From Nannochloris sp. 'desiccata' (taxonomy: Eukaryota; Chlorophyta; Trebouxiophyceae; Chlorellales; Chlorellaceae): DNA of 64,000 bases. Of the stretch, positions 11,340-19,359 are shown in pieces. Below the pieces are notes generated by a model. That model worked only from the letters and a program-made list of their open reading frames with translations, searched no databases and was not told where the DNA came from. The position numbers and the translations under genes were made by a program. The stretch covers positions 620,001 to 684,000 of the forward strand of contig JAGTXX020000012.1 of NCBI GenBank assembly GCA_019044685.2. Direction: 5' to 3'. The stretch's first letter is position 1. Each line of letters opens with the position of its first letter.

Positions 11340-13210
11340 CTATCCGATACGCTTCTGACCACCAGCATCCCCATCATTACCTGAGCTTGGCGCAGGCTGC
11401 TGTGGCTGCGACGCAGGAGGAGCATCTTGAGCAAGTGGCGCTGCAGCTCCTGATGGTGCTGGTGGCACTCTGCCTTCTTCCCCTTCATTCATAGCATGCC
11501 CAGCATCATGGAACCTTTCCTCATCTTCAAAATCATCCTCATCTTCATCTTCTTCTTCAGAATAGTCTCTATCATCTTCACTATGCCACACTTCTTCAGC
11601 CATCCAATCCACGGCTCCCGCTGGAAGGATACCTTCAGCACCACCATCGCCTAGACCTCCAAACATAAGATCCATTGCATGCTCTATATCTGCACTTTCC
11701 AAACCAAGATCCTCACCCCCATCAGATTCCCAATCCTCATCTTCTTCGTCTTCGTGGCTATCGTCGTCATGATCCATCATGCCTTCTTGCTCGCCACCTT
11801 GACCTTGTTCTCCTGCCCCAGGCGCTGCTGCAGCTTGTACAGCGCCAGCAAGGGCAGCGGCAACATCAGCAGCATCTACATTACCTCCTTCACCTTCACC
11901 TCCTCCCGCTGCTGCTGCTTCTCCACTACCCCCCTCTCCAGGAACACCACCGGCAGCAGGATTTGGCTGCTGAGGTTGTTGCTCTGGCAACGGCGGCAGT
12001 GGCAAGCCATTAATTATTAATTGACACGCATCTTCTAATCTATTTCCAGTATACGCAAGTGCACGTGCTGATTGATCTCTATCAAAACCCATCTCCACCA
12101 TGGAATCTAGGGTCCCTGGATCAACTTGACCAGGAGGAAGGCGGGGACGTCGGGCCACCATAAATGCCCCCGCACCACCACCGCCACCTCCAAGGCGTCT
12201 CTGTGGACCGTACACCGCAGCTAATACATCTTCAGTCAATGGTTCATTCCCTTGCGGGTCATCGACATGGCTAAGCGCCCAATCGACCGCTGGTTGGAGT
12301 CGATTGCGGTGGAGAAGCAATGCATTTCTAGAAAGTTGGTCTGGGAAACCCATTGCTGATAGCTCAGCTAAGGCAGCTTCTTCTACTTGAGGGATTTGAA
12401 CAGGTCCTCCTCCACCCATGCCTCCCATTCCTAGAGCTGCAGCTACAGCAGCGACACCACGGGCAGTAGGATCGCCTTCTTCATCTTCATCAAGGTCTTC
12501 TTCACCCTCACCCATCCCGTCATCATCCTCCTCTTCCTCTTCATCCCCTGGCATTCCAAACATGATTTCATCACCTCCAATACCTTGACGTGCGACAGCT
12601 TCTTGTAATTGTTCTAAATATCCGCGCAGCTGTTCGAAATTGCCTTCTACCAAAGCGCGAATGGAGCCTTGTAAGCGATCGTTAGCGGCAGCACCTGCGC
12701 GGGCATGATCAGCCGCAGTAGTTGGTGGGGCGATAGGGGGTGGAGGTTCCCCTGCAGCTGCTAAACGCTCGTTTTCTTCTTTGATTGCAGCGTTGACTTG
12801 GGCTAGAGAGACTGGAGGGTGGGTTTCTAGAGGAGTAGGAGAGGCTTTTTCGCCGGTGTTGCTAGGTGAAACCTTGCGACGGGGCAAGACAACTAAATCA
12901 TCGCCAGCTTTGCACAAGGTCCTGATAGGTTCATTGTCGTCATCTCCACGAAGAAGTCGTCCATATGCATTGATCTGTAGGGAAGAGGTCACAAAAAGAA
13001 GGGTGAGAAACTTGAGATTTGATGGGCTTATGATCAAGTTTGTTAAAAAATAATTGTAAAAATACATACCAGCTTCTGCTCCTCAGGAGCGGGTATATTA
13101 AGAGTTGGCAAGCGTACATGAAGCTCCTTTTTAACCTGCGTTACGCTCCAGTTGGGATCCAAGGCTAAATGCTCCTTTTTGCCTTGGCTCGAAACTACAG
13201 TGACCTCCAT
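11340..13210 (-). CDS. UBL plus tandem-UBA domain protein (UBAC1-like architecture)
   Basis: Two exons, 13070-13210 and 11340-12974, give 591 aa. The N-terminus (residues 1 to about 75) reads as a ubiquitin-like fold (EVTVVSSQGKKEHLALD, then a KELHVRLPTLNIPAPEEQKL-type stretch), the splice falling within it. After a Pro/Ala-rich linker there is an acidic stretch, then two UBA domains: about 250-295 (LAELSAMGFPDQLSRNALL) and about 325-365 (LDSMVEMGFDRDQSARAL). The remainder is a long acidic, Gly-rich region. UBL plus paired UBA domains suggests a ubiquitin shuttle or ligase adaptor; human UBAC1 (a KPC complex subunit) has a comparable order. Domains are clear; the specific orthologue is inferred. 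Confidence 0.85.
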
Positions 13211-13334
13211 CCTGCTTCCGGAGTATCAATATCGAATGTTAATTTGCTTAAACTTTAGATATGCCAGAAAGCATGCTCGGAAGTTTTAAAGCAAATTATG
13301 TGAACCGTTCAACAACTGTCCAAAGTTTGGCTCA

Positions 13335-13740
13335 TAATAGACAATTTTTTAGCCCCTCAGGGACATAAGAGACAAGGAGAGGCTTTGGTTATATAGTCCC
13401 AGAAGGACCTCCGCATGACTATGTTTATTACGTCTGCGAAACCCTGCGGTGCTCAGACCACCGATATATTTGAAATGATCTTTTTTAAAACAGCGAATCC
13501 TTGAAATCGGTGATCCTCTCAGCGTCACCACTTGACACTCCTTCCCAGCAGGTATACAGCACCCCATGTGTTCCAGCGTGGGCATCAGCGCCCCGCTGCA
13601 GGCTGCTGGCCGCCCTCCTCCCTCCCAGCCTGAGTAGGCTGGCCGTCGCCACCGCCGCCAGCAGGAGTCCGCTGGGCGGGCAGCGGGGGAGCCCGCTTGG
13701 CGGGCCCGCGAGCGTGTAGAGTTCGCTCGGGCATGTGCCC
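13335..13740 (-). repeat. Diverged copy (A) of the island repeat
   Basis: Read on the minus strand, this stretch has a GC-rich block, then GGGGTGCTGTATAC (compare GGGGTGC...CTATAC in copy B), then a segment ending GAGGGGCTAAA (compare GGAGGGGCTAAATAAT in copy C2). Similarity is patchy, and part of the GC block matches better in the opposite orientation. Overlapping ORFs on both strands (13349-13907) are products of the GC-rich sequence and have no recognisable features. I treat it as a probable, decayed repeat copy. Confidence 0.4.
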
Positions 13741-13927: not shown

Positions 13928-14119
13928 TTGTTAAAAAAAGTTTTGGCCGCATCGACCTTTCAGAAACCAAAATCGCCAAAGTACTTAACATGGCCACAAA
14001 TGAGACGCTTTGTTAAAGGAAACCACATGGATGACCTAGTCAAGAAACTGATAGGCAAAAATGAGCTCTCAAACATCGACCCTGACGTCATTGTAGTCGC
14101 CCAAATAGTAAGGTCTTAG
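13928..14119 (+). pseudogene. Unrecognised ORF fragment inside the island
   Basis: A 63-codon frame without an ATG start encodes a hydrophilic, helix-prone peptide (for example KYLTWPQMRRFVKG and DDLVKKLIGKNELS). Its composition looks like protein rather than antisense, but it matches nothing I know. It ends at a TAG just before an AT-rich stretch, and lies between repeat copy A and the virus-derived pseudogene. It could be another remnant of the inserted DNA. Confidence 0.3.
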
Positions 14120-14529
14120 TACTGCAGGATTTGGACAACTTTTGCTTTTTTGGCTATTTTGAAAAATAAAAAGCAGTTATTATTAATATTTTTTTTTCAA
14201 AGTATACAAATCGTCATGTATTTGGAAAATACTTAAATCCAAGTCCCATTTATGGCAAATAATTGGTTTTTCAAGTCAAAGAAAAAACTAGAAAGAAAGT
14301 ATTTTTCGGCGCATTTTTGAAGGTCTAGATAAAAACATGTTTTAACAGAGCGATTAACATGTTTTAATATTGATAACCAATGTTACTTTATTGTTCAGCA
14401 TTGTTAGGTGTTACAGATAGAAAGGTTAAACAACTACGTGCCATGCTGCGCCCTGTTTTGACCTTTGACTTTGAACCACCCAGCTAGCCATCGCCGCGTC
14501 GGTTTCTCTACCTGCAGCGGTGCACCCCC
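14120..14529. other. AT-rich island DNA without a gene
   Basis: Poly-T and A-rich stretches, no coding signal. From about 14440 onward the base composition changes abruptly to GC-rich, where the virus-like sequence begins. Confidence 0.4.
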
Positions 14530-15295
14530 ATGGCTAAAAATACATATAAAGAAGAACCGAGTATACATAATATCAAATCAATCATGCCCAACCCGAAAAC
14601 AATCGTCAAAGCCTCCGCCTTCAACCCTGCCCTCCTCAACTTTGACCCCGTCGGCCACTACTCCAAAGGTGGGAAGTTCATTCCTGTCAGCTACGGCCCA
14701 GAAAGGCAGCGTGTCTGCATGCAGACCATCAACCTCTCCTGACCCTTTGGTGTCAGCGTCTATGAAGACCCCAAGACCGGACAGAAATCCTACTCCATCG
14801 ATGTGGCCTTCAAAGACCTCGACGACCCCCAGACCAAAGGATTCTCTGACACCATGCTCGCTCTCAACCATGTCACCCTCAACAAGGCTGTGGAGCATTC
14901 CAAGGACTGGTTCGGCAAGGATATGCCCATGGAGACGATCCGCGAGTTCTACCGCCCTCTCATCAAGCACCCCAAGGACCCCAGATACAGCTCCACCATG
15001 AAGATCAAGATTCCCGTCGACAAATCGGGTGTGCCTACCCCAGTGGTCTACAACGAGGCCAAGGAGTTGGTGGGCTCGACGCCATCACCAAGGGAAGCAG
15101 CATCACCTGTCTTCTCGAGCTGGCTCCTGTCTGGTTTGTCAACAAGACCTTTGGCCTCACTTGGAAGCTGGTGCAGGCCGCGGTCACCCCCGGACCCCAG
15201 AATTTCACTGGCTACTCTCTCCTCGAAGAAGAAGACTGGCGAATACGGCGTGCTATGTCACCTGTTCCATGCTTTACCCTTGTTTCTTTCGAAAA
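14530..15295 (+). pseudogene. Broken DUF5871-like gene from a large DNA algal virus
   Basis: The reading frame resembles the DUF5871 proteins of prasinoviruses and other phycodnaviruses, a conserved late gene of unknown role with a possible nucleic-acid-binding fold. Recognisable parts, in order: an N-terminal segment (FNPALLNFDP), FGVSVYEDP, DWFGKDMPMETIREFYRPL, MKIKIPVDKSG, and a C-terminal VWFVNKTFGLTWKLVQ followed by NFTGYSLLEEED. It is disabled at least twice: an in-frame TGA at 14740-14742, and a frame change (consistent with loss of one base) at about 15073-15075, after which the C-terminal half is read in another frame. Third codon positions are strongly G/C, unlike nearby host genes. 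The likely start is ATG 14583. Family recognition is from memory; no search was run. Confidence 0.72.
14545..14567 (+). promoter_or_regulatory. TATA/TATACA block upstream of the virus-type pseudogene
   Basis: TATAAA at 14545-14550 is followed 17 bases on by TATACA at 14562-14567, and the first ATG of the broken gene is at 14583. The same two boxes recur in the three repeat copies of this island with almost the same spacing. Function is inferred from position only. Confidence 0.45.
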
Positions 15296-15473
15296 AATAA
15301 ATAAAAAAAGTAAAGTTTTTTTCCCAAGAGCGGCGGCTTGCTTGCCCGCACATCACAGTCAATGCGGTCCATCCTGCCCATGTAACAAAACCATCAGCAC
15401 ATCCTACAGATAGTAAATACATGATTAAACCTTTGAGCCCGCACCTCGCTGCGGTGGTGCGAGCACGATGCTC

Positions 15474-15905
15474 GCCTCTTGCCCTCACTGGGGCCGCTGG
15501 GGAGCCCACTGGTGGCGCGCGCATGCCGCAATGGCCGTGCGGGCCCCTATCCATGATGCCACAGGCATCTGTGCCCGATGCGCGCCCATCAGCGGGCCCG
15601 CCGACGGGAGGTGGGCGGACAGGCTTCCAAAGGCATATAAAGGGGTGCCGCGTCTATACAGTCATATGGACTTCATCATGGTGGCTTCTCCTACGTATAT
15701 AGCTGCCCACGCACCCAGCCTCTGATGAATTTATTTTTGAAAAAACAAATGATCTACGAAATGGCGATTCTGATCAGCTCGATAGAACCCATCGAAAAAA
15801 TTATCCCTCTAAGCAGATCCCCCAGTTGCTCAAAAAAGTTAAATAATGCCAATTCTCAATTCTTGGCACTAATTTATCACGGTCTCTAACTAAAGCCGGC
15901 ATGAA
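15474..15905 (+). repeat. Island repeat copy B, with TATA/TATACA block
   Basis: It starts with a GC-rich block nearly identical to copy C1 (GCCTCTTGCCCTCACTGGG..., one mismatch over about 34 bases) and contains CCCATCAGCGGGC. TATAAA is at 15636-15641, TATACA at 15655-15660, and an ATG at 15666 opens a frame of about 20 codons. Downstream homology with copy C2 continues: an AGAGGGATAATTTTTT-like stretch (minus strand), TTAAATAATGCCA at 15839-15851 and CACTAATTTAT at 15868. Element type is unknown. No terminal repeats or target-site duplications were recognised. Confidence 0.7.
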
Positions 15906-16285
15906 TATTGTTTTTTTAAATGAGTTATTACTACTATCCTCATAAGCTAACCATTTGTTTTTAATTTTATTCTCCTATTTCGCCTCTTTTAAACCACTGT
16001 TCTTCGAGGACTCTTGCTCCTCGTCGCGCGTGCTCGGTAGCAGAATCAAGACGAGGTAAGATTATAATCAAATATTGTATACAAATAAAAACTGGAGCTC
16101 AACCCCCTCTGCCGTTCCTTGGCCGCATTCCTACTATCAGCTGGCTTGAATTAATCCCGTTGCAGCTGCGCTTTCGCCTGAAGGAAGGCGGGAAGACGCT
16201 GCGATCTTAACTCTCTCCTAGCTAGTGTGATCAAGCTTTCCCGTTGGGCTGTTTGATCGATTCGCACCCACCTTCCACCAATCAG
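15906..16285. other. Intergenic: promoter side of the coiled-coil gene
   Basis: AT-rich then mixed composition. Short inverted GC motifs around 16010-16060 and 16180-16200, no gene. Confidence 0.35.
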
Positions 16286-16959
16286 ATGTCCAATTCAATG
16301 GATTTCCTCAGACGTAGTCTGGGACTAGGACGCCGGTTGACGACGGCGGCCCAAGCCGCCCCTGCAGGGGTGGAACAAGCCTCCCTAGCAGCGTCAGACC
16401 TCAAGGTAAGCCAACCTCACCAGCTACAGCTACTCCCCGTCTAGAGAATAGTACATGTTGCACGTGTTATCTCAATCAATCACTCTCTTTTTATTATGCG
16501 CAGGGCAAGCTTCTGGAGGATGTGAATAAAATAATCAAGGACAACCCGTCGTTGCGCTATGTTTGGGCAGTGGGTGGGGCTATTATTGTGGGGGGTTCTG
16601 CTCTCTACCATAAGATCCACAACGTAGAGGTCCAAGTTGAGAGAGTAGAGAAGGGCCTGAATGAAAAAATTCACAACCTAGAGGTCCAAGTCGAAAGAGT
16701 AGAGAAGGGCTTGAATGAAAAAATTCACAACGTAGAGGTCCAAGTCGAAAGAGTAGAGAAGGGCTTGAATGAAAAAATTCACAGTTTGGAGGTAGAATTG
16801 AAAGGCGAGCTGCATGACCAGCTAGGCCAGGTAAGGGGAGAACTCTCCAATAACCTGTCATCCATGCGTGCCAGTATGGAGAGAAGCGAGGATAAGCTCA
16901 GTGCTCAAATAGAGAAAACTAATGAGACCTTGGGGCAGCTTTTGAAAAAGCTGCCTTGA
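16286..16959 (+). CDS. Small single-TM coiled-coil protein with three 18-residue repeats
   Basis: Exons 16286-16405 and 16504-16959 join in phase 0 to 191 aa. The N-terminus (MDFLRRSLGLGRRLTTAAQ) is basic and amphipathic, like a mitochondrial presequence. One membrane segment follows at about 54-70 (YVWAVGGAIIVGGSALY). Next come three near-perfect 18-residue units (KIHNVEVQVERVEKGLNE) and a partial fourth, then a helical tail rich in Glu, Lys and Ser (SMERSEDKLSAQIEK). The repeats look like coiled coil. No family is recognised; function is unknown, and a membrane-anchored oligomerising or tethering role would be a guess. It sits between repeat copies B and C, but its base composition and intron look host-like. 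Confidence 0.72.
16612..16791 (+). repeat. 54-bp tandem repeat, 3.3 copies, coding
   Basis: Three 54-base units (from 16612, 16666 and 16720) differ by only a few bases, followed by a partial fourth. They encode the 18-residue units of the coiled-coil gene. The near-identity of the DNA points to recent expansion. Confidence 0.9.
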
Positions 16960-17264
16960 AACTACTGCCTCCACTCCTGTAGCAACTGTTATGTTTTAGT
17001 TTCTGTTCCAACATGATTTTTTTCATTCAATCTCGGTACCAACTTCTTCTGCTACTTTTCATTTCATTTTTTTTGTGTCTGTTTTTCCCGTCAGTTTTTC
17101 ATTTTGTTTTGGTTTTGATATTAGTGTTTGTAATTAGTTTTTTTGTAGTACTCTTAAGTGGTGGTTACGAGGATCAGAGAATTCATAATACAGTAGAATA
17201 CAATAGCAAAAAGAAAGAAAAAAAAAGTGAAATTTCAGTGGATTTTAGAACCATAACCCAAGCT

Positions 17265-17495
17265 GCCCGCCTCTTGCCCTCACTGGGCCCGCTGGGGAGC
17301 CCGCTCGTTTGCTGGCCTGCCCACATGACTTGCGGTCCCCTCTTCATGACGCCAGGGGCATATATGAACTCTGCGAGCCCATCAGCGGGCTGCGCTATTG
17401 AGCTTGGCCCGCCGGCGTTCACGGCAGGTGGTCGGGCAGGCTCGCAAAGGCATATAAAGAGATGCTGGGTCTATACATTATTATTATGAACTCCA
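17265..17495 (+). repeat. Island repeat copy C1 (GC block plus TATA/TATACA)
   Basis: This GC-rich block closely matches copy B and also contains CCCATCAGCGGGC. TATAAA is at 17453-17458 and TATACA at 17472-17477, the same 19-base spacing as B, followed by an ATG at 17486 opening a short frame whose first codons resemble those of B. Its downstream half is missing; copy C2 follows directly. Confidence 0.7.
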
Positions 17496-17519
17496 TCCTG
17501 TTTTGGTTTTCTTATTTAG

Positions 17520-17945
17520 GGTTCTTGCGAAGAACGATGCTCTCCTGATCGTGGTCAAGCTCCCCAACAGGCTTCAGCTGCTGCCCCTGAGTGAGGTATG
17601 GCAGGTCAGGCTGGGGCAAGCCGCCGGGGTGACGGCGGCGGGGAGGCTGAAGGCACATAAAGAAATGCCACGTCTCTAAAAGCAGAGGACTCCAGTCCTC
17701 ACTTCCGATCTCCCCAAATATGTCATTTCTGTGGATACAGCATGTTTTCAATCATCAAGTTGGGAAAACCATTGTGATCACTCTCCGATCCTCAGGGTGG
17801 ATCTCAATCAGCTTCAGATAGAACTCCAGAAAGTTGTCTTTCTGGGCCTTGTTTTTACCCCAATTGGTCGGAGGGGCTAAATAATGCCATTTTAGTGTCT
17901 CTCTCACCAATTTATGTTTGTCTCTCAAGCTAGCAATAGAAAAAT
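17520..17945 (+). repeat. Island repeat copy C2
   Basis: A more diverged GC block leads into CATAAA at 17656-17661 and TCTAAA at about 17675, 19 bases apart and so aligned with the TATA/TATACA pair of copies B and C1. Downstream, homology with B resumes: AGAAAGACAACTTTCT on the minus strand, TAAATAATGCCA at 17878-17889, CACCAATTTAT at 17905 and GTCTCTCAA at 17920. The minus strand holds a short protein-like frame (FLEFYLKLIEIHPEDRRV) of unknown origin. Confidence 0.55.
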
Positions 17946-18162
17946 TTCAACTTCAAACTGAACTTCCATGCATGATGAACGATCATCGGATGCGCCACGC
18001 AATTCATTATTAATCAAATCAGTGTATTTGGCATGCTGCCTGGGAGCAATTAGAATTGAGTGCGAGGTCTAGTATTTTCAATATTTCATTGAAATTAGAT
18101 TTCTGTAGATCACATCAAGCTTCCAGAACTTGCGCCCCATAACCAATAACCTGCACAGCAGA

Positions 18163-19359
18163 ATGCCATCTTTCAAGGTCTATTACATACTTGTCATCTC
18201 ATTGGCAGCACTGCAATACACCGTCATTGCCTCGTTAGAAAACCAAACACTCCCAACACTTCTCGTCGACAGCAAGGCTTCCGAAGACCACCCCTCTACT
18301 GCACCCACAGAAGATGCAGACCTACTAAAATGGGCTTTAAAACACAGTGATATTGATTCACTTCACCAACAAGCTCAAGCAGCGAAGAATGCAAATAAAA
18401 ATGACCCTGACGCAGCTGAACGAAGAGCTCGTGCTGCTGAACTGCTCCATGCTGCTGTGAACGCTATGCCAACAGAAAGCAGCTTGATGGAAGAGGCCGT
18501 GCTTGTTCTTCGTAATACTTCAACTACTGTAGAAGACAAACTTGCAGCGTTAGAAGCTCTTATTGTCCTTGTAGAACCTATAGACAACGCTAATCACCTT
18601 TTAAAAATTGCAAACGCCACTTCGGAGATCAACCACTTTTTAGGCTCTGCTCCTATTTTAGAGGCAGCTGCTGCTAGATTGATTGGTGTGGCTGCTTCAA
18701 ACAATGGGTTTTTTTGCAATGAGCTGATACAACGGCATCCTGATGTTATTCTCCGTCTGGTCCAGTTACAAAGTGCTTCGGCGGATGACACTGTAGCAGC
18801 AGCAATTTATGCAGCAGGCCAATTGCTGAGAAATAGTGGTCGCGCACGGAGTCTTTGGAATCCAGAGGTGTTGATCACATTGATACGTGGTGGGAAGCAA
18901 GTTTCGGAGAGGAGCAGGAAGAAAGCATTGACTTTAGCTGGAGATCTCGTACTGATAGATAATAACAACGATGAAATAAAGGGGGGAAATCGAGGGTGCG
19001 GCATCTTTGCTGGCTGTGATAGTTTAATTAGTGCGTTATTGGATGTACTAGAAGAGCAGTACAAAGGAGGAGATGGTACTTCTTCTGTTAAAAAAATGGA
19101 TTTAGATCTAGCGGAGAAGGCGTTGTTTGCGGTACAAGCAGCAGCTGCTCAACAAAAGAACATCATCAGTGGAGGGGGCGATGAAATTAGTAACGGCACT
19201 GGTGATAGAAGCGAGCGTGTGATTGGCACGTTGGTGGAGATATTGAGACAAGGGGATGAGCATGAGCATGTTTCTGAGTATGAAGCAGACGTTATTGCAC
19301 TGGCTGAACAGTTGTTGTTAGTTAATAAAAGTCCGAGTCGGCACCAAGACGAGCTGTAG
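18163..19359 (+). CDS. SIL1: SIL1/Fes1-like Hsp70 (BiP) nucleotide exchange factor, ER-resident
   Basis: Armadillo-type exchange factors of the SIL1/HspBP1/Fes1 group release ADP from Hsp70s; SIL1 does this for BiP in the ER lumen. The 398-aa intronless protein starts at ATG 18163 with a signal peptide (VYYILVISLAALQYTVIAS). The helical repeat core has EDKLAALEALIVLVEPIDNANHL, AAARLIGVAASNN and AAIYAAGQLLRN, typical of the Fes1/SIL1 fold. The protein ends in QDEL, a variant of the HDEL/KDEL ER-retention signal, which agrees with the signal peptide and argues for SIL1 rather than cytosolic Fes1. An in-frame TTG at 18130 upstream is not needed. The family is well supported; substrate specificity is inferred. 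Confidence 0.85.
   Translation: MPSFKVYYILVISLAALQYTVIASLENQTLPTLLVDSKASEDHPSTAPTEDADLLKWALKHSDIDSLHQQAQAAKNANKNDPDAAERRARAAELLHAAVNAMPTESSLMEEAVLVLRNTSTTVEDKLAALEALIVLVEPIDNANHLLKIANATSEINHFLGSAPILEAAAARLIGVAASNNGFFCNELIQRHPDVILRLVQLQSASADDTVAAAIYAAGQLLRNSGRARSLWNPEVLITLIRGGKQVSERSRKKALTLAGDLVLIDNNNDEIKGGNRGCGIFAGCDSLISALLDVLEEQYKGGDGTSSVKKMDLDLAEKALFAVQAAAAQQKNIISGGGDEISNGTGDRSERVIGTLVEILRQGDEHEHVSEYEADVIALAEQLLLVNKSPSRHQDEL

What the first reader, a model, noticed from the sequence alone, without database searches (positions are those of the whole stretch)
14530..15295. Decayed large-DNA-virus gene in an algal nuclear genome
Motifs characteristic of the DUF5871 family of prasinoviruses/phycodnaviruses are spread over two frames. 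They are broken by an in-frame TGA (14740-14742) and a frame change near 15073, with GC-rich third positions unlike host genes. It implies past integration of an algal giant virus, flanked by intact host genes (UBL-UBA at 13.2 kb, SIL1-like at 18.2 kb).
Basis: partly seen in the sequence, partly recalled or inferred. Interest (0 to 1): 0.78.

Follow-up and report, generated by a model that had tools for sequence, protein, structure and literature searches.

The report
Broken viral DNA-binding gene in alga
A small green alga carries a dead copy of a virus-type gene for a protein that probably coats single-stranded DNA, one of about a dozen copies in its genome, some still intact, which shows how virus replication genes can settle and multiply in an algal nucleus.

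The parts
14530..14739 (+). first open piece of the broken DUF5871 gene; conserved start of intact relatives is at 14584
   Evidence: no Pfam match of its own
14740..14742 (+). in-frame TGA stop, not shared by the C8 duplicate
14743..15072 (+). second piece, same frame; DUF5871 21.5 bits (below the cut-off)
15070..15080 (+). frame change, shared with the C8 duplicate
15075..15251 (+). C-terminal piece in another frame; DUF5871 28.8 bits; the frame does not end where the intact C10:177k relative ends
14533..17947 (+). block collinear at about 93-94% with C8:523628-527050 (segmental duplicate)
13322..13714 (+). left GC-rich dispersed repeat; its outer end resembles, in decayed form, the inverted end of related units
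   Evidence: in-window inverted pairing not significant
13932..14522 (+). repeat segment upstream of the gene, also at C10:276k, C8:428k and (in part) C3:644k
15300..15905 (+). GC-rich repeat that follows several DUF5871 copies, ending by eye in a degenerate copy of the unit end
15909..16967 (+). second repeat unit with a predicted membrane/coiled-coil gene (one apparent intron), also at C8, C10:172k and C1:27k
   Evidence: gene structure is inferred
17264..17950 (+). right dispersed repeat; inverted 13-base end at 17918-17930
11340..13067 (-). flanking host gene with UBA domains
18130..19359 (+). flanking host gene with Fes1/SIL1-like domain

Best explanation
14530-15295 is a dead duplicate of a viral-type single-stranded-DNA-binding (SSB) gene, family DUF5871. 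Shown: the gene family, the lesions, 13 places in the genome, and the duplication relation to C8. Shown by a model only: the gp2.5/CP312R-like SSB fold of an intact paralog. Inferred: the gene entered the algal lineage in a DNA virus or virus-like replicon, where such a protein coats single strands at the fork and its acidic tail contacts other replication proteins. Inside the nucleus the gene was then copied with dispersed repeat units (units with inverted ends and an ATPase-like gene on C10, segmental duplication elsewhere). The window copy arose with its C8 sister after the frame change had happened, acquired its own stop later, and can make no intact SSB now.
Against: No binding test. The fold comes from a paralog, not from the window copy, and no PDB sequence matches it. 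The closest relatives of the host clade are unnamed metagenome proteins, so the viral nature of the nearest branch is not shown. An annotated record models the window gene with what looks like an intron over the stop (P0014), though that removes conserved residues and leaves the frame change. Three scans of viral contigs with the SSB confirmed no relative. The in-window inverted ends are no better than shuffles, and the C9 copy, in the virus-like locus, lacks the dispersed repeats.
Confidence: 0.82

Rival explanations
1. Direct scar of a giant-virus (phycodnavirus) integration at this very place, decayed in situ.
For: Viral-type gene with GC3 0.78 between host genes; chloroviruses carry the family.
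Against: The copy shares 14533-17947 with C8, and the frame change too. Repeat segments on either side recur at many places. Capsid and VLTF3 families found nothing in the genome, but the controls were silent as well.
Confidence: 0.08
2. On the origin, and compatible with the best explanation: the gene family here belongs to a polinton-like-virus or virophage-like lineage (PolA-type polymerase/helicase, tyrosine recombinase, SSB) that lives in this genome, rather than to a giant virus; the window and repeat-borne copies are its debris.
Against: The recombinase matches are weak: phrog_1 E=0.025 for C9, PF00589 16.2 bits under the 27.1 cut-off for C8, no Pfam integrase for C9 and no PDB relative. 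No capsid gene found (no positive control). The word SSB occurs in neither of the two papers. Borders of the C9 locus are not defined, and the C9 copy is only about 80% identical to the window copy.
Confidence: 0.4
3. The SSB has been domesticated: the intact host copies are kept by the alga for its own use, for example against viruses, and the window copy is a failed duplicate.
For: Open frames in 6 of 13 places and dN/dS 0.30-0.39 between the three distinct intact copies.
Against: Selection may have acted in the virus before entry; three C10 copies are identical, so recent amplification alone can explain open frames; no expression data.
Confidence: 0.15
4. Contamination or misassembly: the copy is viral DNA wrongly joined to algal contigs.
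For: None beyond the odd GC3.
Against: Copies on six contigs (C6, C8, C9, C10, C12, C16), shared mosaic repeats, host genes on both sides, and a protein of the same locus in another deposited record with contig length 1629954 against 1630598 here.
Confidence: 0.03

Closest known systems
DUF5871 (PF19196) proteins of chloroviruses, e.g. NY2A B435L, FR483 N327L, ATCV TN603.4.2 274L
   Same: same Pfam family, length 239-296 aa for the six named; the one chlorovirus tail printed (P0119) is acidic
   Different: host copies branch far from them, in a separate clade with unnamed metagenome proteins; the window copy is broken
ASFV CP312R and T7 gp2.5 / Enc34 ssDNA-binding proteins
   Same: fold of the intact paralog; acidic tail in most relatives, as recalled for gp2.5
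   Different: only 10-15% identity in the structural alignments; no sequence match in PDB; binding untested
Polinton-like viruses and virophages with TVpol-S3H and a tyrosine recombinase
   Same: polymerase/helicase and recombinase-like genes of the C8 and C9 loci
   Different: no capsid found; SF2/UL9-like helicase instead of S3H in C9; histone doublet beside it; the window itself holds none of these genes
Giant endogenous viral elements of green algae (title seen as ref. 4 in the reference list of PMC10120064; not read)
   Same: viral-type genes in green-algal chromosomes
   Different: here a single gene copied with repeats, no run of hallmark genes seen at the window

Membership tests
DUF5871 (PF19196) | profile score over the curated cut-off (26.9 bits) | tested here: met
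   C-terminal piece 28.8 bits; middle piece 21.5 (below); N-terminal piece none
T7-gp2.5/CP312R-like SSB | fold | tested here: met
T7-gp2.5/CP312R-like SSB | acidic C-terminal tail | tested here: met
   97 of 133 relatives; aromatic in last two residues in 43 of 133, both in 34; the host C10:177k protein ends in acidic residues and W, the C9 and C10:257k proteins end otherwise. That the tail contacts partners is recalled
T7-gp2.5/CP312R-like SSB | binds single-stranded DNA | not testable with these tools
   needs purified protein
functional gene | one open frame over the conserved length | tested here: not met
   stop at 14740-14742, frame change near 15073
giant endogenous viral element | hallmark NCLDV genes (capsid, VLTF3) nearby or in the genome | tested here: inconclusive
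   0 matches for PF04451, PF16903, PF04947, controls silent too
polinton-like virus / virophage (C8 and C9 loci, not the window) | PolA-type polymerase/primase-helicase | tested here: met
polinton-like virus / virophage (C8 and C9 loci) | tyrosine recombinase | tested here: inconclusive
   R/K/R/H/Y residues shared by C9, C8 and L041, but profile matches are weak or below cut-offs (phrog_1 E=0.025, PF00589 16.2 of 27.1 bits), PDB empty of relatives, L041 protein itself without Pfam match
polinton-like virus / virophage (C8 and C9 loci) | capsid and packaging genes | tested here: inconclusive
   one single-sequence search with a putative capsid protein of L041 found nothing, no positive control; packaging ATPase not tested
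TIR transposon unit | inverted terminal repeats in related units | tested here: met
   13-base inverted ends in five facing pairs (the 13-mer was picked from these ends); for one C10 unit 4 of 500 shuffles reach the pairing score of its ends
TIR transposon unit | inverted ends at the window copy | tested here: inconclusive
   80 and 48 of 500 shuffles reach the in-window score; right end carries the 13-mer, left end is decayed
TIR transposon unit | target-site duplication | tested here: inconclusive
   none evident by eye in 16 left and 16 right ends

The most novel reading that the evidence does not exclude
The alga hosts a lineage of virus-like replicons that pair a PolA-type polymerase/UL9-like helicase, an SSB, a tyrosine recombinase and a fused H2B-H2A histone, i.e. 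a small integrating element that packs its own chromatin. A second element with inverted ends has taken over the SSB gene together with an ATPase and spreads it through the chromosomes; the window copy is debris of that spread.
Probability: 0.25. Interest if true: 0.78.

Novelty: new variant of a known kind. Interest (0 to 1): 0.55.

Why it matters
It gives a likely function (replication SSB) to a viral family still named DUF5871, shows a viral replication gene multiplied with repeats in a green alga with intact and dead copies side by side, and points to a compact virus-like locus (C9) where polymerase/helicase, SSB, recombinase and a histone doublet stand together. If the C9 locus is one element, it makes testable whether small integrating viruses of algae bring their own histone.

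Tried and rejected
Viral contig scans with the SSB (one sequence, two alignments) gave 4, 54 and 14 pattern matches and no confirmed relative; a scan with the C8 polymerase/helicase gave 3 and none. This says little about viruses, as chloroviruses do hold the family. PHROGs had no match for three DUF5871 proteins. PDB sequence searches with the SSB and its profile were empty; only the fold comparison told the function. Capsid and VLTF3 searches of the genome were empty and so were their controls; a search with a putative capsid protein of viral contig L041 was empty. In-window inverted repeats are no better than shuffles. The AF2 model of the C9 helicase protein is poor beyond residue 300 (mean pLDDT 58.2); only its N-terminal domain was used. 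The PDB search with the C9 recombinase-like protein found no relative. No Rfam match in the window.

Literature: DUF5871 occurs in one held paper, in a gene table (listing, passage). No held paper holds both Nannochloris and endogenous viral. Two searches for NCLDV SSB papers gave 0 and 4 listings, none on the point by title. Listings only were seen for the searches, apart from the papers named in this report; passages of PMC10120064 and PMC12768974 were read and gave nothing that decides the case. The report of T7-like SSBs in NCLDVs (Kazlauskas and Venclovas 2012) is recalled; it is not held.

Set aside: a genetic code with TGA as sense (not tested; the frame change would remain) and the apparent intron of P0014.

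Full report
WHAT IS THERE. The window is bases 620001-684000 of contig C12 of a 21.55-Mb, 18-contig genome. Database proteins of this genome are named Nannochloris sp. 'desiccata', and the contig lengths 1060160 and 2785254 of two of them equal those of C10 and C6 here. The pieces searched apart give DUF5871 at 21.5 and 28.8 bits (cut-off 26.9), and nothing for the first piece. The window copy also runs on past the end of the intact C10:177k relative. GC3 is 0.779 against a median of 0.382 for 19 mechanical window ORFs, which were not checked to be genes.

NOT ALONE. A DNA search of the genome gives 13 places, the window included; a DUF5871 profile search gives 11, of which 10 pass the cut-off. 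Both are lower bounds by the tool's own note. From the frames of nine copies and ORF lists, six places are open over the conserved length: C9:908682-909341 and C10:177k, 257k, 263k, 268k and 295k. Seven are broken or cut short: the window; C8:523k with the same frame change but not the stop; C8:427k with a frame change near its start; C10:277k with deletions and a frame change; and the truncated C10:312k, C6:611k and C16:336k. The C8:523k copy is 96% identical and the block 14533-17947 runs on collinear at 93-94%. In a tree of 11 copies (the two shortest of 13 left out), C12 and C8:523k pair with support 98/99. The order of events, frame change first and stop later, is inferred from what the two share. 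Three C10 tandem copies are identical over 221 codons.

HOW IT SPREAD. By my count, 11 of the 13 copies have a GC-rich repeat match within about 3.1 kb upstream and 12 of 13 have one downstream; the C9 copy has neither, the C10:312k copy lacks the upstream one. In related places the unit ends are inverted: a 13-mer occurs 18 times in 294 kb of fetched sequence (0.009 expected; but the word was chosen from these ends and the sequence was fetched for its repeats) and forms five facing pairs 4.4-6.5 kb apart. Three of these five units, about 4.75 kb each, hold an open DUF5871 gene and, on the opposite strand, a gene in several exon-like pieces that resembles archaeal-type ATPases (PF01637, 21.0 bits, cut-off 33.2). 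For one such C10 unit, 4 of 500 shuffles reach the pairing score of its ends. In the window the right end keeps the 13-mer, the left end is decayed, and the inverted pairing is no better than shuffles (80 and 48 of 500). No target-site duplication was evident. I read this as a transposon-like unit that carries the SSB gene; the enzyme that moves it is not known.

ORIGIN. Of 66 relatives of the C9 protein the only ones with an organism name are five Nannochloris proteins. A profile of 18 metagenome members gave 187 hits, 120 listed; six of the 120 bear an organism name, all chloroviruses. In a tree of 49 proteins (48 chosen by me from the 140 found, plus the C10:257k ORF) the three host proteins form one clade (100/99) with P0004, a metagenome entry identical to the C10:257k protein, and two further metagenome proteins. 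It lies near other metagenome proteins and far from the chloroviruses (midpoint root). So the donor is viral by family but unnamed, and prasinoviruses are not indicated by what was listed. Chrysochromulina parva virus BQ1 also lists two DUF5871 genes (PMC12085832, one table passage read).

VERDICT. A real viral-type pseudogene, correctly spotted. It is a dead duplicate within repeats, one of 13 places, most likely of a replication SSB gene. What lies elsewhere in the genome is more interesting than the window copy itself.

Noticed in passing
L025 1774-8761 with L040 (G000:C9:901611-911761): Virus-like locus with polymerase/UL9-like helicase, intact SSB, recombinase-like protein and a fused H2B-H2A histone doublet, near a host chromatin-type gene.
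   Followed up: partly
L038 117-7770 (G000:C8:505117-512770): Sister locus with PolA-type polymerase/DUF5906 helicase and recombinase-like protein, about 11 kb from the C8 duplicate of the window copy.
   Followed up: partly
G000:C11:1259262-1259630: A further DUF5906 helicase match (63.5 bits) in a 443-aa open frame, not looked at.
   Followed up: no
L032 683-919 (G000:C15:944683-944919): Fragment 55% identical over 80 residues to the 172-aa ORF of the C9 locus, right beside the repeat that elsewhere follows DUF5871.
   Followed up: no
L024 5474-6208 (G000:C8:427474-428208): DUF5871 copy that looks mosaic: its C-terminal part equals that of the C10:177k protein, its N-terminal part resembles C16:336k, which suggests gene conversion or recombination between copies.
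   Followed up: partly
L016, L017, L020, L030, L034 and C9 loci: Dispersed family of archaeal-type-ATPase-like genes in exon-like pieces tied to the inverted-end units, with and without DUF5871.
   Followed up: partly
window 16612-16783: Direct repeats (64 bases, 92%) inside the predicted coiled-coil gene.
   Followed up: no
L041 (IMGVR_UViG_3300035698_007259): Viral contig that by my reading is polinton-like: capsid-like 834-aa protein (no Pfam match), polymerase-helicase fusion and recombinase-like protein.
   Followed up: partly
P0014 (KSW81_004952): The window pseudogene appears in a public record as a protein-coding gene, with what looks like an intron over the stop.
   Followed up: partly
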